This document shows positions 1 to 19,483 of a stretch of 47,058 bases of DNA, piece after piece. Within the stretch, counting starts at the first letter, position 1. The number at the start of each line of letters is the position of its first letter. The notes under the pieces were generated by a model. That model saw only the letters and a program-made list of their open reading frames with translations, had not been told where the DNA came from and did not search any database. This DNA comes from an uncultured Verrucomicrobiota bacterium (GTDB taxonomy: Bacteria > Verrucomicrobiota > Kiritimatiellia > RFP12 > UBA3636): positions 1 to 47,058 of the forward strand of contig CAMVRE010000006.1 of assembly GCA_947169825.1 (NCBI GenBank). Reading direction: 5' to 3'. The translations under genes were made by a program, and so were the position numbers.

Positions 1-237
1 AGCCGGCCCCCTCCCTGAGGGGGCTGCCGAGCGAAGCGAGGCTGGGGGAGTCTTCTTCCGCATCGCCCGCGGCGGCTTCGTCCGCCCCGTCGGCACGGGG
101 ATGTCCTCCGCCGCGGCGACCGCTTCGCGGATCGCGCGCATCGACGCGCCCCCGCACACCGGGCATTCGCCCGGGTCGGCCTCGAACTTCGTGTGGCAGA
201 GTTCGCACTCCGCCACGTAGGTGCGCGAGGCGCTCAC
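1..237 (-). CDS. Zinc-ribbon protein, C-terminal end cut by window edge (ASRTYVAECELCHTKFEADPGECPVCGG...)
   Basis: Reverse translation shows CxxC...CxxC zinc ribbon; GTG start overlaps the stop of the upstream gene by 4 nt (GTGA), typical of translational coupling. Confidence 0.55.
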   Translation of the reverse strand, partial: MSASRTYVAECELCHTKFEADPGECPVCGGASMRAIREAVAAAEDIPVPTGRTKPPRAMRKKTPPASLRSAAPSGRGPA

Positions 238-1493
238 GCCAGGTCCTCCAGGAAGAGCGGCTTCGCAAGGATCGTCGCGCCGCGCGTCCGCGCGGGCGCC
301 GATCCTGCATCGGCCGGGTCTCGCGGCTCCGCCGCTCGGGAACCGGCGAGGGATCCACTCTCTGCGATCTCTGCGCTCTCTGCGTGAGATTCAATCTCTG
401 CGCCCTCTGCGCTCTCTGCGTGAGAAACACTCTCTGCGCCCTCTGCGCTCTCTGCGTGAGATTCAATCTCTGCGGTCTCTGCGGTCTCTGCGTGAGATTC
501 AATCTCTGCGGTCTCTGCGTGATCGAGAAGCAACACCGCCGGCCGGATCGCCCAAAACACGCCCTTTCCGCGGAACGTGGTCACGGTCCACGCGGTGCGC
601 CCGCCGCGCACGGGCACGGCCTCGCACCCCGTCTCCGCGTGCTCGTGGCCGTGGACGAACAACCGGACGGGCGAGGGGCTGCGCCCCTCCCCGAACCCCT
701 CCCCACGATGCGGGGCGAAGCGAATGCGGGGCTCTGCGGGCGTAGCCGCGCCGTGCGGCCCTTGCGGTGCTTCCGGAAACAGCGGCGGGTGGGGTTCGGG
801 GAGGGAGGAGCCCTCTCCCGTAGCCTCGCCGGCGGCGATCTCCCCGATGCGGTCCAGCGCGTCCGCGAGGTCGTCGAGCCCGACGTCGCAGAACAGCGAC
901 GCGCGGTTGGGGATCTTGCGGCGCGCGGAGGAGAGGCGGCACCAGGCGAAGTCGCGGTCGCATTCGGGCGCGCCGAGGTCGGCGAGGGTCTTCAGGCGCG
1001 GCAGCAGGTCCGCGTGCGGGACGGCCCCGTGCGCGAGGAGCGCGCCCTCCGCCTCCCCGCGGAGGAGGACCGCCGCGGGCGAGCCGAGGACGAACTCGAT
1101 CCACGCCCGCGCGATCTCGCGCTCCGGGTCGTGATCCGGAAGTCCGTCGAGCTCCTCCGCCCATTCGGCCGGCTCGACCAGCGACGAGAAACTCCGCGTG
1201 GCGGGGTTCCACGAGAGCCCCAGGTCGTGGTCGCCGCGGACGAAGACGAGGCGCGCGTCCTTCCGCGCCGGGTCGAGCCTGCGCGCGAGCCGCATCAGGA
1301 ACGCGGCGCAGCCGGCCGAGTCGCGGCCGCGGTCGATCGCGTCGCCGAGGACGATGAGGAACGCCTTGCGCCCGCTCTCCGCGGCCTTCGCGCGCACGGC
1401 GTCCACCGCGGCGACGAGCGCCGGCAGGTCGCCGTGCGCGTCGCCGACCGCGGCGTAGAGGAATCGTTCGGGCTGGAAGGGCAGGACGGTCAC
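234..1493 (-). CDS. Calcineurin-like metallophosphoesterase with repeat-derived C-terminal insert
   Basis: GDAHGD, GDAIDRG, VRGDHD metallophosphatase motifs; C-terminus contains (HAESAEGAEIES)n. Confidence 0.8.
   Translation of the reverse strand: MTVLPFQPERFLYAAVGDAHGDLPALVAAVDAVRAKAAESGRKAFLIVLGDAIDRGRDSAGCAAFLMRLARRLDPARKDARLVFVRGDHDLGLSWNPATRSFSSLVEPAEWAEELDGLPDHDPEREIARAWIEFVLGSPAAVLLRGEAEGALLAHGAVPHADLLPRLKTLADLGAPECDRDFAWCRLSSARRKIPNRASLFCDVGLDDLADALDRIGEIAAGEATGEGSSLPEPHPPLFPEAPQGPHGAATPAEPRIRFAPHRGEGFGEGRSPSPVRLFVHGHEHAETGCEAVPVRGGRTAWTVTTFRGKGVFWAIRPAVLLLDHAETAEIESHAETAETAEIESHAESAEGAESVSHAESAEGAEIESHAESAEIAESGSLAGSRAAEPRDPADAGSAPARTRGATILAKPLFLEDLA
359..527. repeat. 36-bp tandem repeat (tctctgcgccctctgcgctctctgcgtgagattcaa), 4 full units plus a partial
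   Basis: Units at 359, 395, 431, 467, 503; no unique spacers. Confidence 0.95.
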
Positions 1494-1606: not shown

Positions 1607-3319
1607 TCAGCAGTCCCGGATGTCGCCGTTGAGGAGCGGGAGCAGGGACGGGTCCACGGGAAGCCCGCCGCGGACGCGGACGACGTCGCCCGGAGCGAAC
1701 GCCCGGTTCCACTGCTCCGTCAGGAGCTGGTTCCGGGCGAGGTCGTCCACGCAGACGGGATGGCGGGCCAGTGTCTCCGCGACCCACGCGGGGCCGTCGA
1801 CGTCGCGCTCGGCCGGCTTGCGGCGGGCGAGCTCCCGCTTGAGCGCCCGGAGGCAGTCCTCGAGCGTCGCGTGGACCTTCTTCACGCCGTAGCGCTCCGC
1901 GAGGAACTTCGCGTGGCGCATCCAGGGGACCTCCGGGTCGACGCCGAGCACGACGCGCTTGCCGCGGGCGAGGTTCTCCGCCAGCTCCATCCGCGTCGTG
2001 AGCGCGTAGGGCTTGTCGGCCGGCCTGGCCTGCTTCGGAACCCAGAACAGGACGTAGTCGCACGTGCGGAGTCCGCGCGTCTCCCACTCGACCTGCGGGC
2101 GGTGGGGGAGGTGCTTCCCGCGCGGGTTGAGCCACGCGACGCCCTCGAGCCCCTCCTTCTCGGCGAGCTTCGGGACGGACTTCTGCCACTCCGGCGCGCC
2201 GCCGATGGGGCCGGCGAGGAAGACGGTCCAGCCCTTCTTCTCCGCGAACGGCGTCGGCGGGGCGTACATCGTGCCGCCCCTGCCGCAGTCGACGGGCGGC
2301 GGCGGCGCCTTGTCCGGCTTGGGCGGAACCGGCGGCGGGGGTGCGGGGTCCTGCGCCGGGTCGAGCCACGCGGGCGGCGTGGGGAAGCGGTCCTCGAGCA
2401 TCCCCTTGGAGCCGAGGAATCCGACGCTGCGGGAGGCGGTCGCCTGCGCCTCGCGGAGGCACGCCGCGACGGTCTCCCCGTCGAGGTCCGCGATGCGCGG
2501 GAGGCCGCGGCGGCCGAGCGCGGCGAGGAGGGCGGACGAGGTCCAGTCGCCGGCGCCCTCCCCGTCGACGAAGGCGGGGTTCGCGACGGGCGGGAGGGTG
2601 CGCCACCCCGCCCCGCGGAGGTTGAAGCGGAGCCCTTCCTTGTTCATCGTCCGGACGACGAGCTTGTCGGAGAGCCCCTCCAGGAAGGCCGCGTCGGGGT
2701 AGGCCTCGCTGGAGGCCTTGACAATGTCGGCGGACGCAAGGGCCTTCGCGAGGTCCTTCGGGTCGCACCGCGTGGGCGGCTCGAAGAAGACGAGCGTCCC
2801 GCGGGGGCGAAGCGCCTCCGCGAGCGCCCGGAGGCCGGCGGCGGGCTGGTCGTAGAAGAGGACGTCGGGGCGGTCTGCGCCGAGTCCGTCCAGAAAGGCC
2901 GGAACGTCCTTCTTGTTGAGATACCGGTAGTTTGTGAACGGTCCGCCCCGCGGCGTCTGCGGCCGGTAGGATATCTTGGGGTTGCCGTCCCGGTCGACCC
3001 GGTGCGTCTCGACGAAGAGCGTCGTGCCGCCGTCGCCCTCGGCGGAGACGAAGCGCGTGTCGGCCCCGTAGCGTTCGAGGTCCTCGACGAGGCGGCGGCC
3101 CCAGCCGGAGCCGTCGAAGCGCGCGAGGGGCATCGCGCGCCAGCCGAACTGCGCCGCGAGCATCGTCGCGACGTTGCCGGGCGTGCCCCCGACGTGGACG
3201 TAGAGGCGGCGGACGGAGCCATCGGGCTCCTTCTTCTGGACGATGTCCATCGGCATCGAGCCGGCGGCAAGGCAGGTGAAAGCTTTCATTTCGGAGCGTG
3301 GGCTGGAGGACGTGTTCAT
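1607..3319 (-). CDS. PfkB-family carbohydrate kinase fused to nucleoside 2-deoxyribosyltransferase-like domain
   Basis: N-term PfkB features (GGTPGNVA, GAGDW near catalytic base position); C-term WTVFLAGPIGGAPEWQ...NPRG...WETRGLRTCDYVLFWVP...ELAENLARGKRVVLGVDPEVP as in nucleoside deoxyribosyltransferase-like families; alternative start 3289. Confidence 0.75.
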   Translation of the reverse strand: MNTSSSPRSEMKAFTCLAAGSMPMDIVQKKEPDGSVRRLYVHVGGTPGNVATMLAAQFGWRAMPLARFDGSGWGRRLVEDLERYGADTRFVSAEGDGGTTLFVETHRVDRDGNPKISYRPQTPRGGPFTNYRYLNKKDVPAFLDGLGADRPDVLFYDQPAAGLRALAEALRPRGTLVFFEPPTRCDPKDLAKALASADIVKASSEAYPDAAFLEGLSDKLVVRTMNKEGLRFNLRGAGWRTLPPVANPAFVDGEGAGDWTSSALLAALGRRGLPRIADLDGETVAACLREAQATASRSVGFLGSKGMLEDRFPTPPAWLDPAQDPAPPPPVPPKPDKAPPPPVDCGRGGTMYAPPTPFAEKKGWTVFLAGPIGGAPEWQKSVPKLAEKEGLEGVAWLNPRGKHLPHRPQVEWETRGLRTCDYVLFWVPKQARPADKPYALTTRMELAENLARGKRVVLGVDPEVPWMRHAKFLAERYGVKKVHATLEDCLRALKRELARRKPAERDVDGPAWVAETLARHPVCVDDLARNQLLTEQWNRAFAPGDVVRVRGGLPVDPSLLPLLNGDIRDC

Positions 3320-3331
3320 TTGACTGGAGGG

Positions 3332-3360
3332 ATTGTACCGCCGCCTGACACCGGATTCAA
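3332..3360 (-). promoter_or_regulatory. Sigma70-like promoter TTGAAT-N17-TACAAT
   Basis: Minus strand TTGAAT CCGGTGTCAGGCGGCGG TACAAT. Confidence 0.7.
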
Positions 3361-4118
3361 GCGCAAACGGCGGGTCGGCGGAAAATTTCAGCCTCCCGGC
3401 ACCGGGACTCCGCGGCGGCAAGGGAGCGCACGACGGAGCGGGCGAGCGAGTAGTCGGTCCTGGAGACGAAGCCCCGCCGCACGAGAGTCCCCTTGTCGGA
3501 GAGGGCCTTTCGGACGGAGGCGCAGTCCTCTCCCGTCACGGAGGCGAAGAGTTCGCGGAGTTCGGCCTTGACGCCGGCGTCGGCGGTCGGAAGGAACGGA
3601 ACGTCGCGGAACCAGTCGCACCGGCCCGAACGGAAAAGGTAGAGGAACACGAGCAGGTTCGTCTCGACGGACGAGAGCCCGAACCGCGCCATCGTGCCGC
3701 ACACGAGGTCGAACACCGGGTCGTCCCGCCACCACGGCCACGACCGGCGCACGTCGTCCAGACGGTCCTTGACCCGCCATGCAAGGGCCTTGCGCAAGAA
3801 GGTCAGGGACGAGACGCTTTCCGTGGAGCGCCACACGTCGCGAAGGCCCTCCGAGAGCGGGCGGTCGGAGCGGAACGGTTCCGCGACGTTGCATGGCGCG
3901 TTGGCGACGAACCGGTACTTGCCGTCGGCGACGAACGCGTTGCGGCAGAGCGTGCGGGCGTCCGCGGCGGACGTGACGAGCGCGGCGACGTCGCGGAAAA
4001 AGCCGTTGCCCGGGTCCTCGAAACCGGGATGGCGGACGGCGTTGTGGAGGAACTCGAGTTTCTTCTCGCGGAGAAAGGTCGAGGCGGAATCGGAGGCGGA
4101 GGGAATTGCGTTGTTCAT
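3357..4118 (-). CDS. Hypothetical protein (253 aa)
   Basis: Long ORF with promoter TTGAATCCGGTG...GATAAT just upstream (4158-4182); start 4118 preferred over 4154 because of promoter position. Confidence 0.6.
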   Translation of the reverse strand: MNNAIPSASDSASTFLREKKLEFLHNAVRHPGFEDPGNGFFRDVAALVTSAADARTLCRNAFVADGKYRFVANAPCNVAEPFRSDRPLSEGLRDVWRSTESVSSLTFLRKALAWRVKDRLDDVRRSWPWWRDDPVFDLVCGTMARFGLSSVETNLLVFLYLFRSGRCDWFRDVPFLPTADAGVKAELRELFASVTGEDCASVRKALSDKGTLVRRGFVSRTDYSLARSVVRSLAAAESRCREAEIFRRPAVCA

Positions 4119-4360
4119 GTCGGGATGGGGGTTGGGATGATTGAATGACAACACATTATCTGCGACCTGCCACCGGATTCAAGGACAAAACGAACGAAAA
4201 CGAAAAAAACGATCCTCGGCCCGCGACGACCCCATTCCGCCCGGTCTCGGCGGACATGAACTGTTGCAACGCGCGGTCGCGCGCGCCCGGACGCGTGCGC
4301 GACATGAAATCTTCGCCGATGGCTTCGCACCGGTGCGCGGATGCGCCCCGGCGCCGGTCG

Positions 4361-4951
4361 TCACGACCGCAGATCCGCGAAGGAGACCATGTCCGCGGGC
4401 AGGGGGCGGTCGTATTCGAGGACGCCCCCGCCCGCGCGCAACTCCATCAGGAGGCGCCCGAGGAGGTTCGGGCCGCTGAAGGACGCGCCGTCGGGCGTGC
4501 GCTTGACGCCCCACGCGTCGGGGGTGCGGCGCGGGAAGGTCGTCTGGTCCTCGACGATCGGGCGGTCGCCGCTGCGCGCGAGCTCGGCGCGGAAGGCCGC
4601 GCTCTGGCGGTACTTCTCCATCAGGCAGAACTTCATCGCGTCGACGTCGTGCTCCGCCCAGTCCGGCCGCAGGAAGCCCTCCTTCTGCCAGTGCTTCGCC
4701 GTCATCTTCGGGTTGCCCTTCTTCCCGTAGACGGCGCGGCGCGCCTCCGGGTCCGTGAACTTCATCGTCTGGAAGACGCGCTCGGACGTGTCGAACGGCG
4801 CGCCGTCCACCACGAGCGGCGTCCGCGCGAAGTTGGAGAACACGCCCCACTCCGCGGCGATCTTCGACACCGCGCAGGCGCGGTCCGCCGGATACGTCTC
4901 GAACCCCCAGTACTGCGGGTAGTGGAGCCGGATGGAGTCGGAGACGCGCAT
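4361..4951 (-). CDS. NADAR (YbiA-like) family protein
   Basis: EWGVFSNFARTPLVVDGAPFDTSERVFQTMKF...WAEHDVDAMKFCLMEKYRQSAAFRAEL...WGVKRTPDGASFSGPNLLGRLLMELR. Confidence 0.85.
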   Translation of the reverse strand: MRVSDSIRLHYPQYWGFETYPADRACAVSKIAAEWGVFSNFARTPLVVDGAPFDTSERVFQTMKFTDPEARRAVYGKKGNPKMTAKHWQKEGFLRPDWAEHDVDAMKFCLMEKYRQSAAFRAELARSGDRPIVEDQTTFPRRTPDAWGVKRTPDGASFSGPNLLGRLLMELRAGGGVLEYDRPLPADMVSFADLRS

Positions 4952-4955
4952 CGGG

Positions 4956-5594
4956 TCAGCCTTGCGGGAGGTCCTTGGCGGCGATCGTCTCGAGGACGAC
5001 GGTCTTCGGCTTCTTCGCCGAGGCCGCGTCGCGGTCGAGCCGGTCTGCGGAGACGATGCGGACTTTGCCGGCGTCGAGGACGGCGCGGTTGAACGGGGGC
5101 AGGAAGCGCCCGTCCGGACCCTTTTTCCAGTTGAAGGGCCAGATGATGAAGTCGACGCCGATGCCGTCGAGGAACGCCGATGCCATCTTCTCGCCGTCGA
5201 ACGTCGGCTTTTTCGTTCCCCCGAGACGGCACGCGAGGAAGATTCGGAACGCCTTGCCGTCGGCCGCCGCTTTCGCGGGGATGTCGGCGCCAAGCGACTT
5301 GCGCGCCCTCGCGAGCACAGGCGTCGGAACCGGTTCGCCGAACGCGATCCAGTTGTCCGCGGTGCGCGCGGGAATCTCGACCGTGTAGACGAGGCAGTCC
5401 CCGCCGGCCTTGCTCTTCACGGCGTAGAGCCGGGCGGACTCGTAGCTTTCCGTGACGTAGACGCCGTAGCCGAACTTGCATTTTCCGTCGCCCTCGAGCG
5501 CATGGCCGAGAGAAAACCGGCCGAACGGCGCGGCCGACGTGCCGTGGTAGAAGACGGACGCCTCCGGCGCTTTCATCAGGGAGGATTTTGACAT
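4956..5594 (-). CDS. ADP-ribosyltransferase-fold protein (ART-PolyVal-like)
   Basis: FYHGTS...FGYGVYVTESYESARLYA...LVYTVEIP...ASAFLDGIGVDFIIWP pattern; stop lies 4 nt before the NADAR start. Confidence 0.75.
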   Translation of the reverse strand: MSKSSLMKAPEASVFYHGTSAAPFGRFSLGHALEGDGKCKFGYGVYVTESYESARLYAVKSKAGGDCLVYTVEIPARTADNWIAFGEPVPTPVLARARKSLGADIPAKAAADGKAFRIFLACRLGGTKKPTFDGEKMASAFLDGIGVDFIIWPFNWKKGPDGRFLPPFNRAVLDAGKVRIVSADRLDRDAASAKKPKTVVLETIAAKDLPQG

Positions 5595-5705: not shown

Positions 5706-5963
5706 CTACCCAAACACGTCGCGGAAGGGCTTCACGTTGCCCTCGCCGCGGGCGTTGTGGTCGTCGATGACGGAGAAGACGACGCGGCCGAACGCGGCGC
5801 GGAACTCCGGGGCGGCGAGCTCGTCGCGGAAGAGCTCGGCCATGTGGCGCGGCGGGTTGCGGAATGCGCCGCACCCGAACGCCGAGAGGACGAGCGCCCG
5901 CTGCCCGTTCTCGCGGGCGATGCGGAGAATGGCGCGAATCTTGCGCCGCGTCGCCGCCTCCAT
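5706..5963 (-). pseudogene. C-terminal fragment of microbial-type poly(ADP-ribose) glycohydrolase (TIGR02452-like)
   Basis: 85 aa: ALVLSAFGCGAFRNPPRHMAELFRDELAAPEFRAAFGRVVFSVIDDHN; N-terminal catalytic part not found upstream in frame. Confidence 0.65.
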
Positions 5964-5971
5964 CGCGGGCG

Positions 5972-7225
5972 TCAGGCGTCCGCGAAGAGCTCGTCCGCGC
6001 CGACGATGAAATCGAAGAAGCCCTCTTCCCGGACGGCGGGGGAGAGTTCGCCCGCGTAGACGAGGGCCGTGCGGACGGACAGACCCTTGGCGAGACGGAG
6101 CCGCGACAGCTTTTCCGCGACCTCGTCCGCGATACCGCGGCCGATTTCGCGGCGGCGCTTGATCTCGACGACGCAGACCGACCGCTTCGACTGGACGAGC
6201 AGGTCGATCTGGCATCCCTTCGCGCGGTTCGTCTTCTCCTGACGGTAGGGCGCCGCCGAGAAGACGAGCGAATCGCGCAACCCGATCTTCGGGAGCAGCG
6301 CCGGGACGCGGTCGAGGACGAGATTCTCGAACTGCAGTCCCAGGATGGTCTCCCAGCCGTCGAGCCGCTCCAGCGCGCCGAAGGAGAAGAGCCCCGCCTC
6401 GATCGCCGCCTTCCGGGGCCGGACGTAGTGCAGATAGAACCGCGCGTAGTTGTCCTTCAGGCGCCAGCGTGCCTCGCGGAGCGGCAGGCCCGTCTGCGGA
6501 TTGAGGTCGGCGTCCTTCGCGGCGAATCCGGCGAGCCGGAGTTCCTCGAGCGTGGCGGAAAGATGTCCGTTGACCGTTTCGCCGAGCTCGCCGGCCAGTT
6601 CGGAAACGGTCCGGCTGCCGCGGGCGAGCCCTTCGAGGACGATGCGGCGGCGCATCGCCTTCTCCCCGAATACGTCGGAGAATATCTCGTCGAACTCGCG
6701 GAAGAGGAGCCCCCCGGGCGTGAAGCAGAGCCGGCGGACGTTCTCGTCCGCGGAAAGCGCCGGCCGGATTTCCTGGAGATAGCGGGGAATCCCGCCCGTG
6801 ACGGACAGGACGTCGAGCTTCTCGCCGAGGGCGATCCGCGAAGCCCGCTTCCCGAAGAACCGGTCGCAGTCCCGGAGCGGCAGTTCCGGCACCTCGAGGT
6901 CGAGGGAGTTGCGCCCCGCGAACCCCGTGTTCTTCAGGATGTTCTCGACGATCCACGCCGAGACGGAGCCGCACAGGACGAAGACCAGCCCCCGCCGCCG
7001 GGAGAACAGCCGGTCCCACGCCTTCTTCAGGTATCCCGCGAAGTCCGGATCGTATCCGCCGAGCCAGGAGATCTCGTCGAGGAGGACGACCGTCCGCCCG
7101 CCGTCCGGGAGCGCCCCGTCGAGAAGCGCGAACGCTTCGCTCCACGTCTCGACCACGACCTTCGGCAGCCGGGATTGCGCGGCGAGGTCGGCGCAGAACG
7201 CCTCGCGCTGCTTCCGGTCGTCCAT
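5972..7225 (-). pseudogene. AAA ATPase (ATPase_2/DUF234-like), N-terminally truncated
   Basis: VVLLDEISWLGGYDPDFAGYLKKAWD (Walker B), LVFVLCGSVSAWI, CQIDLLVQSKRSVCVVEIK; Walker A region (GRRRIGKT) absent. Confidence 0.65.
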
Positions 7226-7266
7226 GCCCGGACGCGCAGAACCGGCCGGAAAACGCAAACAAAATC

Positions 7267-7354
7267 GGGCAACTAATCGTCAAAATGTCATTTAGTTGCC
7301 CAAAGAAGATAGATTTTCCGGGCGACTAATCGACACAATGTCGTTTATCCGCCC
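7267..7354. repeat. Two tandem 35-bp imperfect palindromes
   Basis: gggcaactaatcgtcaaaatgtcatttagttgccc (7267-7301) and gggcgactaatcgacacaatgtcgtttatccgccc (7320-7354). Confidence 0.9.
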
Positions 7355-7496
7355 CGGACCGGGCGAAGCTCGGGTGAGCCCATGTCGACGAGAAAACGCC
7401 CCTCCAGGAGCGCGACGAGCACGCGCCCGCCGAACGTCCCGATTGCGCAGTTCATGCGATGTTCGGCGTCCTTCGGGGCCGTCCCCGGTTTCTCCC

Positions 7497-8933
7497 CTAT
7501 GCCTGCTTCCCCGTCCAGATGCGGAACTGCTCGGGCTTGAGGCCGAAGTGGCGGATCAGACGGATCGGGACGCCGGTTTCCTGCAGAAATCCGGCTTTCG
7601 TTCCGAGGGAGAGGTCGGCCCGCACGTCGCCGTTCGGCCCGAGGTAGGGGCTCGCCTTTTCCAGCTTGGCGTGTCCGCCCCTGCGGGCGAAGGGACGCCG
7701 CCCCCCCTTGAGCCGGAACGTCGGCTCGTCCGGCAGGGCCTCGAACTTGGCCGCATCGACGGTCACCAGTGTTTCGAGCAGCCGCAGGAGGAGATCGCTC
7801 CATGATTTCGACTCCCCCTTGAAAGCCCCGTCGAAGACCAGTCCGCCCGGCGACCGGATTCCGTCCAAATGTCGCTTCTCAAGCGGAATCGACGCATCGG
7901 CGGGAATGGAAACGGGCGCGATGTCCGCGGTCGGGGCGGGGGCTCCGGATTCGATCGCCTTCCGGAGCGCCTCCTGCATGTCGGCGACCGCTTTCGTCTG
8001 CGCGTTGATCTTTGCGAGCAGCGCGTCGATTTGCTCGGAGCCGGGGCCTGCGGAGGCGCCGCCGTAGAAGCGTTCCCGGACGTAGAGTTCGCGCTGGCGG
8101 CCCTTTAGGTAAAGGACCGAAGTCTGCGCGCGATACACGACGGATTCCTCGCGTCCGAGATAGACGACGTCCGGACTCGGCTTGACGGGCACCCGGACGA
8201 ACCGCAGTCCCGAACCGGTCGGGTCGGGGATGGCCTCGGGCTGGCCGACGAGCGCCGCGGCCGCCGTTCCGAGGTAGCACCGCACGGCGGTCGTCAGCTT
8301 GGTCGTGAAACCGTCGAAGTCGGATTTGTAATCGTAGTTCCTATCCAGGACCTTGTCCATCATGATCGGCGCTTCGCCGAGATGGGGCAGATCGCCCTCG
8401 ATTCCGGTCACGAAGCCCTTGTCGTCCACGCCCAGGTAGAGGTCGCCGCCGGCGGTGTTCATCAGCGCGGCGATCTCCTTGGCGATTTCGAACGGCTGGT
8501 CGGAATCGGGCTGGTGCGTCGTCGGGCTGAAGACGAGCGACGACTTCAGCTCCAGGGTCAGGCTCTCCTTCAGTCCGGTCTGCCCGCCCCGTGTCGGACG
8601 GGGCCGCGCGGGCGTGGCCGCCTTGGGCGCAGGCGCGGCCGGCCTGGGCGCAGGAGCGGAGGCCGTCGGGACGGCCGGAGCGGGCGGCGCGTAGTATCTC
8701 GGCGCCAGCGCGAACTCGGGCCCTTTGTCGGTCACCTCGGTGCAGACCAGTTCAATGGCCTTGTCCTTCAACTTTCGGACATCGGTCGTCGGCTTGCCGG
8801 ACACCTCGACCTTGAAGCACGAGCCGTCCTCCATCCGGACATTGATGTACAAGGGGTCCTTTTTGGAGACGAACAGGACGAACGGCTTGTAGGATTTGCC
8901 TTTTTCGAAAGGCGTAAGCGTTCCGGGTGTCAT
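7497..8933 (-). CDS. AlbA_2 (Schlafen AlbA_2) domain protein
   Basis: ESLTLELKSSLVFSP...EIAKEIAALMNTAGGDLYLGVDDKGFVTGIEGDL. Confidence 0.75.
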   Translation of the reverse strand: MTPGTLTPFEKGKSYKPFVLFVSKKDPLYINVRMEDGSCFKVEVSGKPTTDVRKLKDKAIELVCTEVTDKGPEFALAPRYYAPPAPAVPTASAPAPRPAAPAPKAATPARPRPTRGGQTGLKESLTLELKSSLVFSPTTHQPDSDQPFEIAKEIAALMNTAGGDLYLGVDDKGFVTGIEGDLPHLGEAPIMMDKVLDRNYDYKSDFDGFTTKLTTAVRCYLGTAAAALVGQPEAIPDPTGSGLRFVRVPVKPSPDVVYLGREESVVYRAQTSVLYLKGRQRELYVRERFYGGASAGPGSEQIDALLAKINAQTKAVADMQEALRKAIESGAPAPTADIAPVSIPADASIPLEKRHLDGIRSPGGLVFDGAFKGESKSWSDLLLRLLETLVTVDAAKFEALPDEPTFRLKGGRRPFARRGGHAKLEKASPYLGPNGDVRADLSLGTKAGFLQETGVPIRLIRHFGLKPEQFRIWTGKQA

Positions 8934-8967
8934 GGGATTCTTTCCTCTTGGCGGAATTCTTTCGATT

Positions 8968-11900
8968 TCAGTTTTTCGCGATCGTGGCGACGATTTCGTC
9001 GGAGCCGAATTGAGAGCGGATGCGGGCAAAGTGACCCGGGCTGTAGCGCGAGAAAATGCGAAGCAGCGTTTTTTCGAACGATGCCGCGTCGTTGTACTTT
9101 TCGGCAAGCGTGGAGATGGTCCGCGGCGGCAATGTCAGATACTCCCGGATGTCGGTTTCCAAATCCGCTGCGAAAGCGGCGAGTTCGGGAGGAAGTTTCG
9201 GCTTGAATCTCGAGAGGTTCTGATGTGCGAGAACGATCGTCGAGTTGCCGCCCTGCTGCGGCATCTTCGTTTCCGGGGCGAACTTCTGCAGCTTCCGGTA
9301 GATTCCTTCCTTCTCGGTCTGCTTCCCGTCCTTGTCGGGCCCCGTCCAGAAGGCGGGATCGAACGGTTCGGCTTTCTTGTCGAAATCGCACTTGATTGCC
9401 TTGATTCCGTCTTCCAGGGTCCATTGCTCGATTTTTCCGGAATCCGGATTGTGGACGATGGCGAACAGCCCGGGCCCGCGGCGGCGGAAGAGGAACGTTC
9501 CGCGCGGATTTCCCGACCAGGCGGTCTTGACGCGCCCCGGAAGCTTGTCCAGTTTCTCGAGAACATCCGGATGGTTCTTCCGGAGCCAGGCCTCCTGCTT
9601 CCGCCAATCAACGCGAAGTTGCGAGAAGAGGTCCATCTGCTCCTTCTCTTCGGGGAAGAGACCAAGCCGGTCGAAGAGAGCGGATGCCGTCGGCGTTTCT
9701 TCGGCGGAGAAAATCTGCGCGTCCTCGCCGAGGAGTTCGTGGATTGCGAACATCTTCGCCTGGGCCGTCTCCTTGTTCTGGACGAGCGTCTGTCCCTTCA
9801 CGGTCGGGAAGAAGTTGAAAATGTAGAGATTCTCGAACATCTTCTTGCCGATTCGATTGACGCGTCCAACACGCTGGATGACGCGCGTGGGGTTCCACGG
9901 AATGTCGTAGTTGACGACGAGCCCCGCCCGGTTGAGGTTGAACCCTTCGCTGAGCTTGTCGGTCGCGAGCAGGATGTCGTATTGGTCGATTTGGAATTGT
10001 GCCGGGACGGACGCGTCGAAATTGCTTTTTAGTTCGCCGCGCCTGTTCTTCGCGAAGTTCTCGCCACTTACGGACAGCACCCGCGAACCGAACTTGTCCG
10101 TCAGTTTCCCGTAGAGGTGCTTGAGCGTGTCGGTGTATGCCGTGAACACAATGATTTTTCGCTTCGGGCTACCCGGCTCTGGCTTGATGTCCCGGTGCTT
10201 CCCGTCAAGAACCTTGCGCAGGGCCCCCACAAGAGCTTCCGCCTTGGGGTCGTTCCGCACCAGGTCGAGATCCTTGATTTCGGCGAGAATCTTTTCGAGC
10301 AGGGCGATGTCCTCGTCGATGTCGCGGCGGAAGTCTGCGCCACGGAATCGCTTGGGATCGTTCACGTTGTATTCCAGATCCCTGCTCTGCGAAGTCCGGC
10401 CCTTCCGCTCGCGGTCGGCCATGCGTTCCTTGACGAGTTTCGCGAGCAGTTCGAGCGCCTCGCCTTCGTCGTCAAGCGCGAGGACTTTCTCCTGGATGTC
10501 GCGCGCATAGACGTAGTATCCGAGTCTGTCCACCATCTTCTTCACGTTCTTCAGGAAAGAGAGCATGTTTTCGATGGATTTTTCGAACGCCCCGAAGGAA
10601 CTTTCGAAACGGAGGACGAGAATGTTGAGAAGTATCTTGTAGATGTTCTGCTGCGAGTTGTCCTGGTCGTTCTGGTTCGTTTCGTAGGCGTAGGGACGGT
10701 AAGCGGCGCCGTGGAACGTCCCGTCCTTCCCGAACCAGTCATTCACCACGCGGTCGTAGAAGGCGTTCTGCGCTTCCGTGAGTTCGAAGAACTGTGACTT
10801 GGGCTCTTTCACCTCCGAAAGCTCGGTCACTTCCTTGCTGTACACCGGGTCGGCCTTGAGGTCGAGACGGTTGCGGCGGATCACGACTTTCTCCATGATC
10901 TGCCGCATGGCTTTCGTAATCCGTTTTCCGTAGCGGTCCGCCGCTTGGCGAACCAGCTTCAGGTCCGCGCCCTGGCCGGTCTTCACTCCCGAAATGCCGC
11001 AGGCCGCGAGGGCCGCTTCGATTTCGGCCCAGTTTTTCCGGACAATGGCCTTGCGGAGCCGGAGCAGGTTGGCGAATTCCGAAGAAAGCTGCCGGAACCG
11101 GCCGTCCAGGTCTCCGCCCGGAACGAACGGCGAATTCTTTCCGGGCGAAAAGAGCGTGAGAAGCGCCGCCAGGTCTTCCGGTCGGTTGTTGAACGGCGTG
11201 GCCGAGAGCAACAGGACGTCCCGTCCCGCGCAGATTTGCGCGAGCTTTTCGTAACCCGCCGTCGCCCGCGACCGGAACCAGTGCGCTTCGTCCACGACTA
11301 CGAGATCGAAGTCGGGGTCACGCCCGAGCATGTCGAGTATGTCGTCGAGCTTGCCGCGCGAACAGACCGCCCAGTCGTGCAGGCCGAATTTCGCCACGTA
11401 TTCCCACCAGCCGGAATCCTTCGCGGTTTCGTCGCCGACGAGTCCGGGCGGGCAGATGACGAGCCCCCGTTTGCGCGAGAGAGCACCGAGAAGGCTGGCG
11501 ATTACGGTCTTGCCGAGACCCACGACGTCCGCGAGGATGCAACCGTGCCAGGCGTCCAACTTCGCGAGAGCCTGGGCCACTGCGTCGAGCTGGTATTGCA
11601 TCTTCTTCATGCCGGCATTTTTCAAAAGCTCCTCCGCCCGCGCCGTGTTCAGCGTTTTCGTCTGATTGTCCACATAGGCGCGGAGAACGAGCAGATAGGC
11701 CTCGTAAGGCGTTATTTCGGAGACAATCGACTCCGTGGTCAGAATGTCGAGGATCCGATTTTTTGTTGCGGAATCTTCCGTGAGATGAATCGCATCCTTC
11801 CACAGCCCGTCGAAATAGCTCTGCGCGTCCGTTGCGCCCCACTGCAGCATTCCGACGTTGAACTCGTCCCGCAACGCCAGCCCCGCCTCCGAGAAGTTGC

Positions 11901-12408
11901 TGCTTCCCGTGACCCAGAACGTGCCTGCGCCAGGAACGACCTGCCGGTCCTGCGACAAATGGAAAAGATAGAGCTTGGCGTGGTTCGGGTCCCTCGTGCG
12001 GCGCATCTTGAGCCGACCGTTCCGAAGAAGATCCACGAACAGGGAAAAGCGCTCGTGGAACTTGGCCGTGTCGAACATTTCCGACCCCATGGCCTTGCGA
12101 AGCGAGGCAAGGTAGGATTCGAGAATCTCGTCGGGCGAGGCATCATCGGCGCTCTTCCCGGCTATTTCCACGACCTTGCCGCACACGGGCTCCGCCTCCA
12201 TGCCGACCAGAACCCTAAGCTGTACTTTCGGATTGTCGCGCAAGGTGTCGGCCAGGAGCTTGAAGCCAGAAAAGTAGAAGAACCCCACGAGTATGTCGAT
12301 TTCGTCGCAGTTCGGGACGAGTCCGTTGAAAACGTCCGCCACCTTCGGAGTGTTGGCCTTGGGGTCGATTTCGTTGGGTGCCGGATTCAGGTTGTTGGTA
12401 ATGAACAT
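8968..12408 (-). CDS. PLD-domain plus SNF2/DEAD-like helicase fusion
   Basis: N-term HAKLYLFH...TGSSNFSEAGL (PLD); ADVVGLGKTVIA Walker A, VVVDEAHWFRS, LLSATPFNN, LSEGFNLNRAGLVVNYDIPWNPTRVIQRVGRVNRIG. Confidence 0.92.
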   Translation of the reverse strand: MFITNNLNPAPNEIDPKANTPKVADVFNGLVPNCDEIDILVGFFYFSGFKLLADTLRDNPKVQLRVLVGMEAEPVCGKVVEIAGKSADDASPDEILESYLASLRKAMGSEMFDTAKFHERFSLFVDLLRNGRLKMRRTRDPNHAKLYLFHLSQDRQVVPGAGTFWVTGSSNFSEAGLALRDEFNVGMLQWGATDAQSYFDGLWKDAIHLTEDSATKNRILDILTTESIVSEITPYEAYLLVLRAYVDNQTKTLNTARAEELLKNAGMKKMQYQLDAVAQALAKLDAWHGCILADVVGLGKTVIASLLGALSRKRGLVICPPGLVGDETAKDSGWWEYVAKFGLHDWAVCSRGKLDDILDMLGRDPDFDLVVVDEAHWFRSRATAGYEKLAQICAGRDVLLLSATPFNNRPEDLAALLTLFSPGKNSPFVPGGDLDGRFRQLSSEFANLLRLRKAIVRKNWAEIEAALAACGISGVKTGQGADLKLVRQAADRYGKRITKAMRQIMEKVVIRRNRLDLKADPVYSKEVTELSEVKEPKSQFFELTEAQNAFYDRVVNDWFGKDGTFHGAAYRPYAYETNQNDQDNSQQNIYKILLNILVLRFESSFGAFEKSIENMLSFLKNVKKMVDRLGYYVYARDIQEKVLALDDEGEALELLAKLVKERMADRERKGRTSQSRDLEYNVNDPKRFRGADFRRDIDEDIALLEKILAEIKDLDLVRNDPKAEALVGALRKVLDGKHRDIKPEPGSPKRKIIVFTAYTDTLKHLYGKLTDKFGSRVLSVSGENFAKNRRGELKSNFDASVPAQFQIDQYDILLATDKLSEGFNLNRAGLVVNYDIPWNPTRVIQRVGRVNRIGKKMFENLYIFNFFPTVKGQTLVQNKETAQAKMFAIHELLGEDAQIFSAEETPTASALFDRLGLFPEEKEQMDLFSQLRVDWRKQEAWLRKNHPDVLEKLDKLPGRVKTAWSGNPRGTFLFRRRGPGLFAIVHNPDSGKIEQWTLEDGIKAIKCDFDKKAEPFDPAFWTGPDKDGKQTEKEGIYRKLQKFAPETKMPQQGGNSTIVLAHQNLSRFKPKLPPELAAFAADLETDIREYLTLPPRTISTLAEKYNDAASFEKTLLRIFSRYSPGHFARIRSQFGSDEIVATIAKN

Positions 12409-12501
12409 TTTGAATTCCTCGATGGATTGCGGTTGTTTTGTTGTCGGGGTGAAAACGTGTTGAATTCAGTCGGTTCCGGAAATTGATTCTCACATGTCTT
12501 C

Positions 12502-15500
12502 CTACTCCAAATAGTCATCCTCGTCCGGAGCTGGCGAATGCGATCCTTTCGCCTTGGAGGTCTTGCCATTTGAGCCGGGTCTTGAGACTCCCTCAGCATT
12601 GCGTGAATCTGTTTCCGCGTCCCGCCCTTCGACAATATCGATTTCGGGTTGCGTCAGACCGTAAAGCTTGTAGACGATTTGGTCGATGTCCTTCTCCAAT
12701 GCCGCCGTGTCCGCGGAGGGATTCTCCTTCTTTGTCGCGAGAATGCGATCGACAAGAGATTCAATCTTTCGCATTTCGGAAGCAGGAGGGGCGGGAGGAA
12801 AAGGCAAGGAATTAAGTTCGCCGGAGGAAACATGTGTGTTGCTGTTGAAAAGGCGAAACCAATAATCCATAAAGTGGGAATTTATACATCCGAGAAGATA
12901 CAAACCTTGATTTTTTGTATCAACTTTGAAAACATTGGTACTGTTTTCGGTTACTATTGGAAATTTTTCTTGGTGCGAATCAATCAACGTGGCGATAATC
13001 CTCCAAGGCTGCTCGACGGCAGTCGTCCGTTGCGTAACCAAAGCAATTCCGTCAAAGCGCGGCGCTTCGTTCGAATTAATGAATGCGCTGTCGGCTCTTC
13101 GTGCAGGGGGCGCAAGGAAATAGCGTTGCACGTTTTCCCCGAAAAGCATTCTGGCGGAATTATTGGTCGGCGAACTCGAAAGCCACCGTTTGTATTTGTT
13201 CCATTCGATGCTTCCGGTGACAAAACCGAGGGGATTCTTGCATTCGGACATAATTCTTCTGGCAACGATATAGTCCGTTTCGTTGTCGGATGCCAAAATC
13301 CTGCCATCGGGCATGATGATGTTTTGTTTCGGGCAAGAGTAGAATTGCAGGTGGTCGAGATCGGATTTCGTCCGGACGATTCCGGTCTCCGCGGTTCCGT
13401 TTCCTTCCCGGTACCAGAAGGAAACAACCACGGACTGAAGTACGCCTTCAAAGGTGTCAGTCCGATTCTCGATGTTTACGATTTTGCAAGAGTCGTAGGC
13501 GGGAACGATTTGTTTTCTCGTTGCGGCCAGATAGGCGTCCCCGAGCAGTGTTTTCGGATGAATGTACGAAAGCATGCCTGTCTTAGAAGTCAATCGCGTC
13601 GAGACGGCAAAGAAGAGTTGGTAGATGTTTACTCGCCCCGACTTGTAGTCGGGGTAAAGGGTTTCGTATGTTCCTTTCAGATCGTTATTTTTCTTGATGA
13701 CGAAATACGGCGGATTCCCGATGACGATGTCGAAACCGTCCCTGACGTCGAACATCCAGTCCGGGTCGAAGAAGCCGGCGGAGGCGTTCTGGTCGTAGGG
13801 GTCCCACGCGGCGACCATGGCGGAGAGACGCTCGACGTTCGAGTTCCCGGCGGCGCGGTTCTTCTTCGCGTTCTCGCGGTCGATTTCGCGGCGGCAGTTG
13901 GCCATGCAGGTTTCGAGACGGCGGCGTTTCTCCTCGTTGGCGTCGAACCGCTCGAGCGAGACCTCCTGCGCCGGCGGGTCGCCGAAGAGCGCGTCCTGCA
14001 CGGGCTTGCGGCGTTCTTCCCACCTGGGCTCCCGGACGGATTCCCATTCGCCTTCGAGCCGCCCGAGCAGTTCGGTCGCCCGGCGAATGCGGTCCCCGTC
14101 GGGCGTGCAGAGGGAGTCGGAGACGGCGGCGGCGATTTCGGCGCGTTTGGCCTTTTCCTTTTCCTGGTACTTTCGCTTGGTCTTCCAGCCGCGCGCCTGG
14201 AAGATGGCGTGGCGGATTTCGCGCAGGTCGGTGCGGAGCTTGGGGATTTTGCCTCCGCTGAAATCGAATTCGCCGCCGACGTCGGGAAGCGGCAGGAGGG
14301 TGTTGGCGCAAACGAACTTGCTTTCCAGGTTGGGAAGAGCGACGAACGCCTCCGAAAGCGGCGTTCCGTCCGGCGGGTCGGGCTGGTCGCAGAGAAGCGA
14401 AATGTAGAAGCGCAGTTTTGAAATCTGGGCGGCGATGGGCTGGATGTCCACGCCGTAGATGCAGTTCTCGATGATCCAGAGCTTGCGCGCGTAGTCGAGG
14501 TTGACCTTCTGCTCGGAGAACATCTTGTCGAGGTCGGCGAAGCGCTTCTGCTTCTCCGCGGGGTCGTCGATCGTCTCGGCCGAGAGGCGGAACTGATCCT
14601 CCTTATAGCGGCGCTGGATGCGCGTCAGGATGGCGAGGCCGCTCGGGTCGAGGACGGCAAGCAGGCGCGTCATCGCGTGGAGCATGCCCATCGGGAACGC
14701 GCCCGAGCCGCAGGCCGGGTCGAGCGAGCGGCAGTCGTAAAGCGCTTCGAGCAGCGCATTCTGCTCATCCGGCGAAAATGGAAGTTTCTTGTTGTCCTCG
14801 CCCGCGGCGGCCCGCCGGAAGAGTTCGTCCAGTTTCTTCTCGTCCGCAGCGGCGGGAACCTTGGCGCGGAGGTGGGCGCGGAGGGACTGCTCCACCATGT
14901 AGTCCACGATTTCGCGCGGCGTATAGAACGACCCCGTCATCTTCCGGGCGGCTTCCTGCGTTTCGTGGTTGAACGCGCCGAGGAGGTTCTCGAAGACCTT
15001 GCCGAGCAGTTCGGGGTCGAGCGCGACGTCACCGTCGTTTGTCGCATTCTCGTCGATCGTGAAATCGTAGGCGGCGAGGAGATTCAGGAGTCCTTCGTGT
15101 CCTTCCTCGTCGGAGCCGTCTCCGAAGAAGAGCGCGTTCGGGAGAACCGCCTGGCATTTCTCGTTGCGGCTGAATCCGTCGAGATAGACGTCGTCGTCCG
15201 GATTGCCGGATTCGGCCTTCGGGTCGAGACAGTCGAAGAGCGCGCAGTTGAGGAACGGAATGTCGCGGAGGAGGCTCTTCCTAGAGGAATCCTTCGAGAA
15301 GAAAACGTCCGGGTCCCGGAACGCCTCGCGGAAGCGGTAGCGGTTGCGGACGTCGTGGTCGGAGGCATGGCCGTGGTAGGGTGTCTGCGCCCACGTGCGC
15401 TCGTCCGGCGGGACGTTGAGCGTCGCGAAAAAGAGGTTCTGGAGAACGGCTCGGTAGTAGGACGTTCCGTTCTTCCCGTCCAGGGACTCGGGTTTGAAGT

Positions 15501-16332
15501 CCCGGAGGTTCGTTTCGGCCCAGCTCCGGGCGAACGGTTCGTCGGGGACGAGACCGCGTTCGCGGACGAACCAGACGAAGAGCAGCCGGGTGATCAGGCG
15601 GATGACCGCCTCCTGGATCTTCGTGCGGTCGTCCGTTTCGTCGCCGATCCGATTCGGAAAGGAAACGCCGGTTTCGGGCGCGCAGGCCCACTCGTACCAC
15701 TTGAACAGGTGTTCGTAGAAATCCTTGGTGAGCTGTTCGACGGAAAAGGCCTTTTCGAGCGCCTCGAAGGAAGGAACCGGATCTCCGAGGCGTTTGCGCA
15801 TCGTGTTGCAGCGCCTGTCCGCGCGGCAGAAGAACGAGTGGCGGCGGGCGTCCGACCATTTCTTGGTCCGGCGGTCCACGCGGGCGGTCACGAACGAGAT
15901 CCGGAAATTGCCGTCCGCGTCGTAGAAGAAGAACAGTCCCTGCGTGCAAAGCCCATCAATGCCAGCGGGCGGGTTGTCAAGTGCGACTTGGACGATCTTC
16001 TTGGCATAATCGAACTGGACGAGACGGGACGTGCGTTCGGCTAGTGGCCGGTTCATCAGGACCGACGCGACGACAAGCGGACGGTTTTCGCCGGTCTTGT
16101 CCGGAAGCGTTTTCACGAAACCGAGAATCTGGGCCGAATCGAAATAGTCTTTTTCGTTTCGGTTGCTGAAAGCGGGGGCGGCGATCGTAAGCCCCGGCGC
16201 GAACGACGAAAACTTGCGTTGCAGCCAACTGACGGCTTGTTCGTACGAATAGTTTTCGATGAGGGCGGCGAGGGCGTCCCGGGCGGCGTTGTCGATGGTC
16301 GTGGCGGCAGAACGGGCGGTACGGCGGGGCAT
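12502..16332 (-). CDS. Eco57I/PglX-like N6-adenine DNA methyltransferase (possible type IIG RM enzyme)
   Basis: SLDPACGSGAFPMGMLHAM, FDIVIGNPPYFVIKKN; ORF track begins at a TTG (16359), ATG at 16332 preferred. Confidence 0.9.
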   Translation of the reverse strand: MPRRTARSAATTIDNAARDALAALIENYSYEQAVSWLQRKFSSFAPGLTIAAPAFSNRNEKDYFDSAQILGFVKTLPDKTGENRPLVVASVLMNRPLAERTSRLVQFDYAKKIVQVALDNPPAGIDGLCTQGLFFFYDADGNFRISFVTARVDRRTKKWSDARRHSFFCRADRRCNTMRKRLGDPVPSFEALEKAFSVEQLTKDFYEHLFKWYEWACAPETGVSFPNRIGDETDDRTKIQEAVIRLITRLLFVWFVRERGLVPDEPFARSWAETNLRDFKPESLDGKNGTSYYRAVLQNLFFATLNVPPDERTWAQTPYHGHASDHDVRNRYRFREAFRDPDVFFSKDSSRKSLLRDIPFLNCALFDCLDPKAESGNPDDDVYLDGFSRNEKCQAVLPNALFFGDGSDEEGHEGLLNLLAAYDFTIDENATNDGDVALDPELLGKVFENLLGAFNHETQEAARKMTGSFYTPREIVDYMVEQSLRAHLRAKVPAAADEKKLDELFRRAAAGEDNKKLPFSPDEQNALLEALYDCRSLDPACGSGAFPMGMLHAMTRLLAVLDPSGLAILTRIQRRYKEDQFRLSAETIDDPAEKQKRFADLDKMFSEQKVNLDYARKLWIIENCIYGVDIQPIAAQISKLRFYISLLCDQPDPPDGTPLSEAFVALPNLESKFVCANTLLPLPDVGGEFDFSGGKIPKLRTDLREIRHAIFQARGWKTKRKYQEKEKAKRAEIAAAVSDSLCTPDGDRIRRATELLGRLEGEWESVREPRWEERRKPVQDALFGDPPAQEVSLERFDANEEKRRRLETCMANCRREIDRENAKKNRAAGNSNVERLSAMVAAWDPYDQNASAGFFDPDWMFDVRDGFDIVIGNPPYFVIKKNNDLKGTYETLYPDYKSGRVNIYQLFFAVSTRLTSKTGMLSYIHPKTLLGDAYLAATRKQIVPAYDSCKIVNIENRTDTFEGVLQSVVVSFWYREGNGTAETGIVRTKSDLDHLQFYSCPKQNIIMPDGRILASDNETDYIVARRIMSECKNPLGFVTGSIEWNKYKRWLSSSPTNNSARMLFGENVQRYFLAPPARRADSAFINSNEAPRFDGIALVTQRTTAVEQPWRIIATLIDSHQEKFPIVTENSTNVFKVDTKNQGLYLLGCINSHFMDYWFRLFNSNTHVSSGELNSLPFPPAPPASEMRKIESLVDRILATKKENPSADTAALEKDIDQIVYKLYGLTQPEIDIVEGRDAETDSRNAEGVSRPGSNGKTSKAKGSHSPAPDEDDYLE

Positions 16333-16359
16333 GGCTGAATCGGGGAGCGGGAGTGACAA

Positions 16360-18853: not shown

Positions 18854-19354
18854 TCAACGCAAGATGTGGTCCGCAATCGAGCCGGAGACGGTTTTGAATT
18901 TCTCCACGGCGGACATCACGCTCACGCCCATGAAGTCAAAAAGCTCGTTGCGCGACTGCATGGCGGGAAGATCGGAAAGAGGAAACCAGCCCCACGGATC
19001 CATTTCGTGGTAGAAACGGAAGTCGTCGCTCGTCTGCGGTGGGGCGAGGAAGTAGATAAAGGTTTCCCAGTGGAATTCGTAGAAGAATGGAATCGATCGG
19101 TCGTAGCGGATCGAATCCACACGGCGGGCCGTGAGACGGTCGACGTCAACGTCCATTTCCTCGAAGGTTTCGCGTTTGGCCGTCGTCAGGAAGTCTCCGC
19201 CGTCGCGGGCGTCCATGCCGCCGCCGGGGAAGGACCATTTGCCCTTGCCGATGCGGAAAGGACCGATGCCATACTTTCGTTTGCCGAGGAAGACCTCATA
19301 TTGGCCGTCCCTCTGCCGGAAGAATGCGATTCCCGCGCCGCGGTAGGTTTTCAT
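18854..19354 (-). CDS. Nudix hydrolase
   Basis: GKGKWSFPGGGMDARDGGDFLTTAKRETFEEMDVD (Nudix box). Confidence 0.9.
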   Translation of the reverse strand: MKTYRGAGIAFFRQRDGQYEVFLGKRKYGIGPFRIGKGKWSFPGGGMDARDGGDFLTTAKRETFEEMDVDVDRLTARRVDSIRYDRSIPFFYEFHWETFIYFLAPPQTSDDFRFYHEMDPWGWFPLSDLPAMQSRNELFDFMGVSVMSAVEKFKTVSGSIADHILR

Positions 19355-19483
19355 GCGTGCTCTTTCGTGTCGTGTGGCGATGGCTGGATTGTACCAGACC
19401 GCCGGGCGGAAGTCACGCGTCCCCCGTTTTCGCAAGATTCTGGACGAGCGTCGAGGGCATGGTGAATCGAATTCCGAAGAAGC

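What the first reader, a model, noticed from the sequence alone, without database searches (positions are those of the whole stretch)
4361..5594. Adjacent ART-fold + NADAR operon: candidate ADP-ribosylation toxin/reversal module
Seen: ORF 4956-5594 carries an ART-like pattern (YHGTS...FGYGVYVTES...YTVEIP...ASAFLDGIGVDFI) and ends 4 nt before a NADAR/YbiA-like ORF. Knowledge: NADAR proteins can reverse guanine ADP-ribosylation and pair with DarT1-type toxins. Inference: here the partner does not look like DarT but like the ART domains of phage polyvalent/MuF proteins, so this could be a non-DarT ART-NADAR pair with an unknown target.
Basis: partly seen in the sequence, partly recalled or inferred. 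Interest (0 to 1): 0.8.

Follow-up and report, generated by a model that had tools for sequence, protein, structure and literature searches.

The report
ADP-ribose writer–eraser gene pair
Two adjacent genes encode an enzyme predicted to attach ADP-ribose and an enzyme predicted to remove it; the pair recurs as a unit in many gut bacteria, often with a sugar-type kinase and further ADP-ribose removers, and looks like a new version of known toxin–antitoxin or phage-defence modules.

Summary
ORF 4956-5594(-) is a confidently modelled ADP-ribosyltransferase (AlphaFold pLDDT 93; nearest solved folds are a phage ejectosome protein, diphtheria toxin and PARP2). Four bases downstream, 4361-4951(-) is a NADAR of the YbiA type with its key residues intact. 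A genome scan using the ART profile alone gave 75 loci, nearly all gut or rumen Bacteroidales plus some Kiritimatiellae. Of 68 complete ARTs, 61 have the NADAR directly beside them, in either order, median gap 2 bp, with one natural fusion. Distant ARTs and distant NADARs show no such pairing.

A PfkB (ribokinase-like) kinase lies within 4 kb in 24 of 62 paired loci, PARG in 10, ADP-ribosylglycohydrolase in 6. In two related genomes the same ART at the same site sits beside different eraser cassettes (ARH-PfkB-NADAR versus PARG-NADAR-PfkB). Here the PARG is a remnant and PfkB is fused to a deoxyribosyltransferase-like domain.

DarT-unrelated ART–NADAR pairs are already published (YarT–YbiA, 2024). 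This is a new variant: a different ART family (H-Y-N, no catalytic glutamate) with accessory enzymes. Guanine target and toxin/defence role are inferred, not shown.

The parts
4956..5594 (-). ART gene, 212 aa; ADP-ribosyltransferase with H17-Y46-N169 at the triad positions, invariant R117, near-invariant E135
   Evidence: AlphaFold2 pLDDT 93.2, pTM 0.88; Foldseek to cyanophage A4 ejectosome protein, diphtheria toxin, PARP2 and phage ART-PolyVal; residue counts over 69 homologues
4361..4951 (-). NADAR gene, 196 aa, YbiA-type; E57, K64 and E134 match the catalytic/ADPr-contacting E43, K50 and E125 of P. nicotianae NADAR
   Evidence: Pfam NADAR 1.2e-18; YbiA structure 2b3w 5.9e-13; profile alignment to 8bau and 2b3w read with PMC11543638
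1607..3289 (-). PfkB (ribokinase-like) kinase fused to a nucleoside 2-deoxyribosyltransferase-like domain (ORF open from 3421; start by homology at 3289)
   Evidence: Pfam Nuc_deoxyri_tr2 2e-11 and PfkB 1.5e-8; AlphaFold2 pLDDT 93.3 and fructokinase/ribokinase matches; PfkB directly downstream of NADAR in all five relatives
5706..5978 (-). PARG (bacterial type, TIGR02452) remnant: C-terminal ~90 residues only; intact in the sister genome (L025/L007)
   Evidence: TIGR02452 7.4e-17 on profile positions 183-264 of 266; 95% DNA identity to L007 begins at 5978; full PARG_cat_microb 1.1e-28 in L025
3302..4363 (-). about 1.06 kb insert between NADAR and PfkB, absent from the sister genome; carries ORF 3357-4154 (265 aa, unknown)
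   Evidence: blastn of the window against L007; no Pfam, NCBIfam, PHROG or PADLOC match
234..1493 (-). calcineurin-like metallophosphoesterase next in line; doubtful member (a NADAR-metallophosphoesterase fusion exists in L044, but the sister genome lacks this gene here)
   Evidence: Pfam Metallophos 1.2e-9; L044 fusion; ORF list of L007

Best explanation
The two genes form a reversible ADP-ribosylation module. The ART uses NAD+ to attach ADP-ribose to a base, most likely guanine, in nucleic acid or a nucleotide. The YbiA-type NADAR hydrolyses that bond and so protects the cell. Growth arrest or infection control would follow when the eraser is lost or outrun, as in toxin-antitoxin and abortive-infection systems. 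The accessory PfkB kinase and a second eraser (PARG or ARH) would deal with released sugar or nucleoside, or with other ADP-ribose linkages. Shown here by sequence and structure prediction: ART fold, intact NADAR residues, tight and repeatedly rebuilt linkage, exchange of eraser cassettes. Inferred: catalytic activity, guanine as target, toxicity, defence role, and what the kinase does.
For: ART fold at high confidence. NADAR residues conserved, and guanine-ADPr hydrolysis shown for the NADARs assayed in PMC11543638, PMC11125620 and PMC11833690. 61 of 68 complete ARTs paired with NADAR, both orders, median gap 2 bp, 30 of 80 gaps being short overlaps, one fusion, L091. At least 6 order changes on the ART tree. 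None of the distant ARTs or distant NADARs is paired. A NADAR-only scan of viral contigs found one module-type NADAR, and it too has this ART beside it. Cassette exchange: L070 and L073 share ~98% identical ART DNA and 88-98% identical flanks but carry ARH-PfkB-NADAR versus PARG-NADAR-PfkB. Conversely the window and its sister share NADAR (dS 0.095) but not the ART allele (dS 0.73). So the partners fit each other's chemistry rather than one specific protein, which suits an enzymatic antidote. Spread across phyla: the window's ART and those of other Kiritimatiellae sit in two separate places among Bacteroidales ARTs. The window's neighbours upstream match PADLOC PDC-S27, HKD+SNF2 and type IIG restriction models.
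Against: No activity or toxicity has been measured. The third triad position is Asn in 66 of 69 members, so the usual catalytic glutamate is missing; activity may be weak, substrate-assisted or different. Neighbours of the 75 loci are mixed, with few repeated defence families, so a defence role is not evident from context. A kinase and several hydrolases could equally mean metabolism. NADARs can also act on riboflavin intermediates (PMC11543638), so guanine is not certain.
Confidence: 0.6

Rival explanations
1. Regulatory or salvage cassette: the ART modifies a small molecule or RNA (for example a guanine nucleotide) as part of normal nucleotide or NAD metabolism, NADAR resets it, and PfkB, NDT, PARG and ARH recycle the products. 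Not a toxin.
For: PfkB in 24 of 62 loci, PARG in 10, ARH in 6; PfkB fused to a nucleoside deoxyribosyltransferase-like domain in the window; a dGTPase-like gene directly downstream of PfkB in L085 and L090; PfkB fold nearest to fructo-/ribokinases, with aminoimidazole riboside kinase also in the list.
Against: Very patchy distribution (6 of 192 relatives), transfer across phyla, allele and cassette swapping and rapid ART change are unlike a housekeeping pathway. 31 of 62 loci have ART and NADAR without any of these accessories.
Confidence: 0.25
2. The ART is an interbacterial or injected effector with NADAR as its immunity protein.
For: Related ART domains occur in phage polyvalent proteins and PARP/diphtheria-type toxins; YarT resembles T6SS Rhs toxins (PMC11125620).
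Against: The ARTs here are mostly small single-domain ORFs of about 172-235 aa with no recurring delivery domain or secretion genes nearby.
Confidence: 0.08
3. The ART is catalytically dead or only binds ADP-ribose/NAD, serving as a sensor or regulator of NADAR.
For: Asn in place of the catalytic Glu at the third triad position in 66 of 69.
Against: H17, Y46 and R117 are invariant and E135 is 67 of 69 over ARTs that otherwise diverge to ~35-40% identity. A phage polyvalent ART aligned here also has Asn at that place (L020), and human mono-ARTs without the Glu are active (own knowledge).
Confidence: 0.07

Closest known systems
YarT-YbiA toxin-antitoxin pair (myxobacteria; Cihlova et al. 2024, PMC11125620)
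   Same: DarT-unrelated ART encoded beside a YbiA-type NADAR; NADAR is the enzymatic antidote, probably of guanine ADP-ribosylation.
   Different: YarT is a small HYD1/Tre23-like ART with an H-Y-E motif (E92) downstream of ybiA. Here the ART is 172-235 aa, ART-PolyVal/PARP-like, H-Y-N, in either gene order, with PfkB/PARG/ARH; no HYD1 match in Pfam.
DarT1-NADAR (DarTG1)
   Same: ART plus NADAR in one operon.
   Different: No DarT profile match; this NADAR has the YbiA-type Glu (E134), not the Asp of DarT1-linked NADARs.
PADLOC candidate PDC-M42
   Same: Its C protein is NADAR-like (61 of 63 of our NADARs match, best 2.4e-11) and its A protein ART-like (8 of 69, best 5e-4).
   Different: Its B protein has a C-terminal HTH; where found (L106, L107) it sits by a DUF3990 ART and not by this pair. 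No PfkB, PARG or ARH there.
DS-32 (NCBIfam DS32_1/DS32_2 anti-phage proteins)
   Same: DS32_2 is a NADAR-family anti-phage protein; the window NADAR matches at 9.7e-25.
   Different: 86.7 bits against a cut-off of 240; the DS32_1 partner was not found in this 73%-complete genome and no ART here matches any NCBIfam model.
ART-PolyVal / DUF3990 domains
   Same: Nearest sequence and fold family of the ART.
   Different: Those occur in phage polyvalent proteins or as DUF3990 genes, without a NADAR beside them in the loci checked.

Membership tests
ART superfamily, H-Y-[E/D/Q] clade | ART fold | tested here: met
   pLDDT 93.2 model; top PDB hits are ARTs and a phage ejectosome protein
ART superfamily, H-Y-[E/D/Q] clade | H and Y of the triad | tested here: met
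   H17 and Y46 invariant in 69 of 69
ART superfamily, H-Y-[E/D/Q] clade | Third residue E, D or Q | tested here: not met
   Asn in 66 of 69, Asp in 2, Lys in 1 at position 169; position assigned by alignment and by the start of the predicted strand 168-172, not by superposed coordinates
NADAR superfamily, YbiA subfamily | Fold/profile and residues E43, K50, E125 (P. nicotianae numbering) | tested here: met
   Pfam 1.2e-18; E57, K64, E134 aligned (PMC11543638)
NADAR superfamily, YbiA subfamily | Guanine-ADPr hydrolase activity | not testable with these tools
   needs assay
DarT1-NADAR | DarT-type ART | tested here: not met
   no DarT model among Pfam matches
DarT1-NADAR | NADAR with catalytic Asp in place of YbiA Glu | tested here: not met
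   E134 invariant in 63 NADARs, aligned to E125
YarT-YbiA | DarT-unrelated ART adjacent to YbiA-type NADAR | tested here: met
YarT-YbiA | Small HYD1/Tre23-like ART with H-Y-E | tested here: not met
   no HYD1 match; H-Y-N. YarT itself could not be fetched for direct comparison
YarT-YbiA / toxin-antitoxin | ART toxic alone, rescued by its NADAR | not testable with these tools
   needs expression experiment
PDC-M42 | ART (A) + HTH protein (B) + NADAR (C) together | tested here: not met
   C matched, A weak, B not beside this pair
DS-32 | DS32_1 and DS32_2 above curated cut-offs | tested here: not met
   DS32_2 86.7 of 240 bits; DS32_1 not found in the genome, though the search had no positive control

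The most novel reading that the evidence does not exclude
A self-contained ADP-ribose circuit for phage defence: a writer related to the ARTs that phages inject, one or two interchangeable erasers (NADAR with PARG or ARH) and a ribokinase-like kinase that handles the product, exchanged as cassettes among gut bacteria, with the kinase as an undescribed component of ADP-ribosylation immunity.
Probability: 0.25. Interest if true: 0.85.

Novelty: new variant of a known kind. Interest (0 to 1): 0.62.

Why it matters
It extends reversible base ADP-ribosylation beyond DarT and YarT to a new ART family that is common in gut and rumen Bacteroidales and carries no name in NCBIfam. The natural cassette swaps (same ART with different NADARs, same NADAR with different ARTs) give ready-made pairs to test whether a NADAR antidote recognises the chemical bond or the partner protein. 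The recurrent PfkB kinase suggests an unstudied step after ADP-ribose removal.

Tried and rejected
First NADAR scan used a wrong end (4952, out of frame) and found nothing; redone. ART against PDB by single sequence: nothing useful; profile against PDB: only a marginal PARP12 match among chance hits. ART in phages: none; plasmids: weak DUF3990-type matches only. The PDC-M13 match turned out to be DUF3990-like genes elsewhere in these genomes. The unknown ORF 3357-4154 was compared with AAA proteins found near other copies: no convincing match. The NDT-like domain found no solved relative. Considered and rejected: DarT1-NADAR, YarT, DS-32 and PDC-M42 as direct membership (see the table). Literature search for NADAR with PfkB found no paper describing the combination; de Souza and Aravind 2012, who surveyed NADAR neighbourhoods, is not held, so prior mention of PfkB there cannot be excluded.

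Full report
Observation. The ART ORF lies at 4956-5594 on the minus strand (212 aa) and is followed after 4 nt by a NADAR ORF at 4361-4951 (196 aa). The NADAR matches Pfam NADAR at 1.2e-18 and the E. coli YbiA structure at 5.9e-13. The ART alone gives only weak profile matches (ART-PolyVal 5e-4, DUF3990 0.02), so the ART call needed homologues and a model.

The ART. With 69 homologues, 67 match ART-PolyVal, 58 DUF3990 and 29 PARP; none matches any NCBIfam model. AlphaFold2 on that alignment gives pLDDT 93.2 and pTM 0.88. Foldseek places it with a cyanophage ejectosome protein, diphtheria toxin, PARP2 and, lower in the list, the ParT toxin, and with many phage ART-PolyVal domains (best 3e-10). 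H17, Y46 and R117 are invariant and E135 is 67 of 69. The residue at the third triad position is Asn in 66 of 69, so the motif is H-Y-N rather than H-Y-E. A phage polyvalent ART aligned to the profile also has Asn there (L020). This is a caveat on mechanism, not a sign of decay, since the residue is conserved.

The NADAR. In the profile alignment to solved NADARs, E57, K64 and E134 fall on E43, K50 and E125 of P. nicotianae NADAR, the residues tied to guanine-ADPr hydrolysis in PMC11543638. E57 and E134 are invariant and K64 is conserved in at least 90% of the 63 family members. The Glu at E134 marks the YbiA subfamily; DarT1-linked NADARs have Asp (PMC11543638).

Linkage. A scan of one genome per species with the ART profile only returned 75 loci, nearly all gut or rumen Bacteroidales plus some Kiritimatiellae. 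Among 68 complete ARTs, 61 have NADAR in the same-strand chain: ART-NADAR 37, NADAR-ART 7, and the rest with PfkB before, between or after. The median gap is 2 bp and 30 of 80 gaps are -4, -1 or -8. Of the seven exceptions, two are at contig ends (L041, L068), one has a frame-broken PfkB in between (L056), one has a small ORF in between (L064), one has its NADAR with a second ART nearby (L082), one is a 150-aa fragment (L097), and one is genuine (L031; that genome has a full pair elsewhere, L047). L091 is a natural ART-NADAR fusion. Controls: 15 distant ART hits have no NADAR and 8 distant NADARs have no such ART. In 192 relatives all six NADARs scoring below 1e-70 are next to this ART. A NADAR-only scan of viral contigs found one module-type NADAR, and it is adjacent to this ART (L122). 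Gene order changed at least 6 times and PfkB presence at least 13 times on the ART tree.

More than a pair. PfkB follows NADAR directly in all five relatives, and after an insert in the window. Over 62 paired loci PfkB lies within 4 kb in 24, PARG in 10 and ADP-ribosylglycohydrolase in 6 (Pfam confirmation). The PfkB model (pLDDT 93.3) is nearest to fructo- and ribokinases, with E244, G245, G247 and D248 of the EGxGD motif invariant. In the window it is fused to a nucleoside 2-deoxyribosyltransferase-like domain. In L085 and L090 a dGTPase-like gene follows PfkB. NADAR is fused to a metallophosphoesterase in L044 and is duplicated in L057.

Exchange of partners. L070 and L073 share one chromosomal site: flanks 88-98% identical and ART ~98% identical in DNA, but between them ARH-PfkB-NADAR is replaced by PARG-NADAR-PfkB, with NADARs about 50% identical. 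In the other direction, the window and its sister genome G009 share NADAR (95% aa, dS 0.095) and PfkB-NDT (88%), but their ARTs are only 56% identical with dS 0.73, so the ART allele has a different history from its flanks. Either partner can be replaced while the pair persists. This argues for an enzymatic antidote acting on the product rather than one relying on a specific protein contact; that step is inference.

State of this copy. The PARG upstream is truncated at 5978, where an ATPase ORF (PDC-S27-like) ends its reading frame. About 1.06 kb carrying an unknown ORF (3357-4154) is inserted between NADAR and PfkB. ART, NADAR and PfkB-NDT are intact. Neighbouring genes include a SNF2/HKD-type helicase and a type IIG-like restriction-methylation ORF, so this copy sits in a defence-like stretch. 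Context elsewhere is mixed. On the ART tree the window pair and the other Kiritimatiellae lie in two separate places among Bacteroidales, which suggests at least two transfers between phyla.

What it most likely does. A writer-eraser module: the ART modifies a base (guanine is the best guess from NADAR biochemistry) and NADAR reverses it, in toxin-antitoxin or abortive-infection fashion, with a kinase and second eraser handling products or other linkages. Linkage and anatomy are shown; activity, target, toxicity and defence are inferred. The main rival is a nucleotide salvage or regulatory cassette.

Compared with what is known. A DarT-unrelated ART with a YbiA antidote is published as YarT-YbiA (PMC11125620), but that ART is a smaller HYD1-type H-Y-E enzyme without these accessories. 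DarT1-NADAR, PDC-M42 and DS-32 each share the NADAR but fail at least one defining test here. Hence a new variant of a known kind.

Noticed in passing
window 5972-16359: Minus-strand run of defence-like genes: PDC-S27-type ATPase, Schlafen AlbA_2 protein, SNF2/HKD-type helicase, type IIG-like restriction-methylation ORF.
   Followed up: partly
window 3357-4154: 265-aa ORF with no match in any library, in a ~1 kb insert absent from the sister genome, with a promoter-like site just upstream (4182-4155).
   Followed up: partly
window 234-745: The 3' part of the metallophosphoesterase ORF encodes near-perfect repeats of the type HAESAEGAE; probably a simple-sequence expansion.
   Followed up: no
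window 18854-19483: Reads by eye like a Nudix hydrolase (an ADP-ribose-related family); not tested.
   Followed up: no
L044:1104-2390: NADAR fused to a calcineurin-like phosphoesterase next to the ART.
   Followed up: partly
L085:2382-3566 and L090:7262-8446: dGTPase-like gene directly downstream of ART-NADAR-PfkB in two Kiritimatiellae (for L090).
   Followed up: partly
L122:2369-3579: A 36-kb IMG/VR contig carries the ART-NADAR pair, beside AAA and SIS-like genes that also recur at chromosomal copies.
   Followed up: partly
L075:3369-4034 and L082:2218-2883: A second, ~25% identical ART near the main one, with PARG between; in L082 the NADAR sits with this second ART.
   Followed up: partly
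L106 and L107: DUF3990-type ART beside a protein with a C-terminal HTH (PADLOC PDC-M42B) in two genomes that also hold the ART-NADAR pair.
   Followed up: partly
L010 (repeats near 6400 and 11300): A nearly identical short stretch (encoding APVSEWQTTWTQNPRAERRGGPTPPRGTIQKKPFN) occurs at two places, perhaps a mobile repeat.
   Followed up: no
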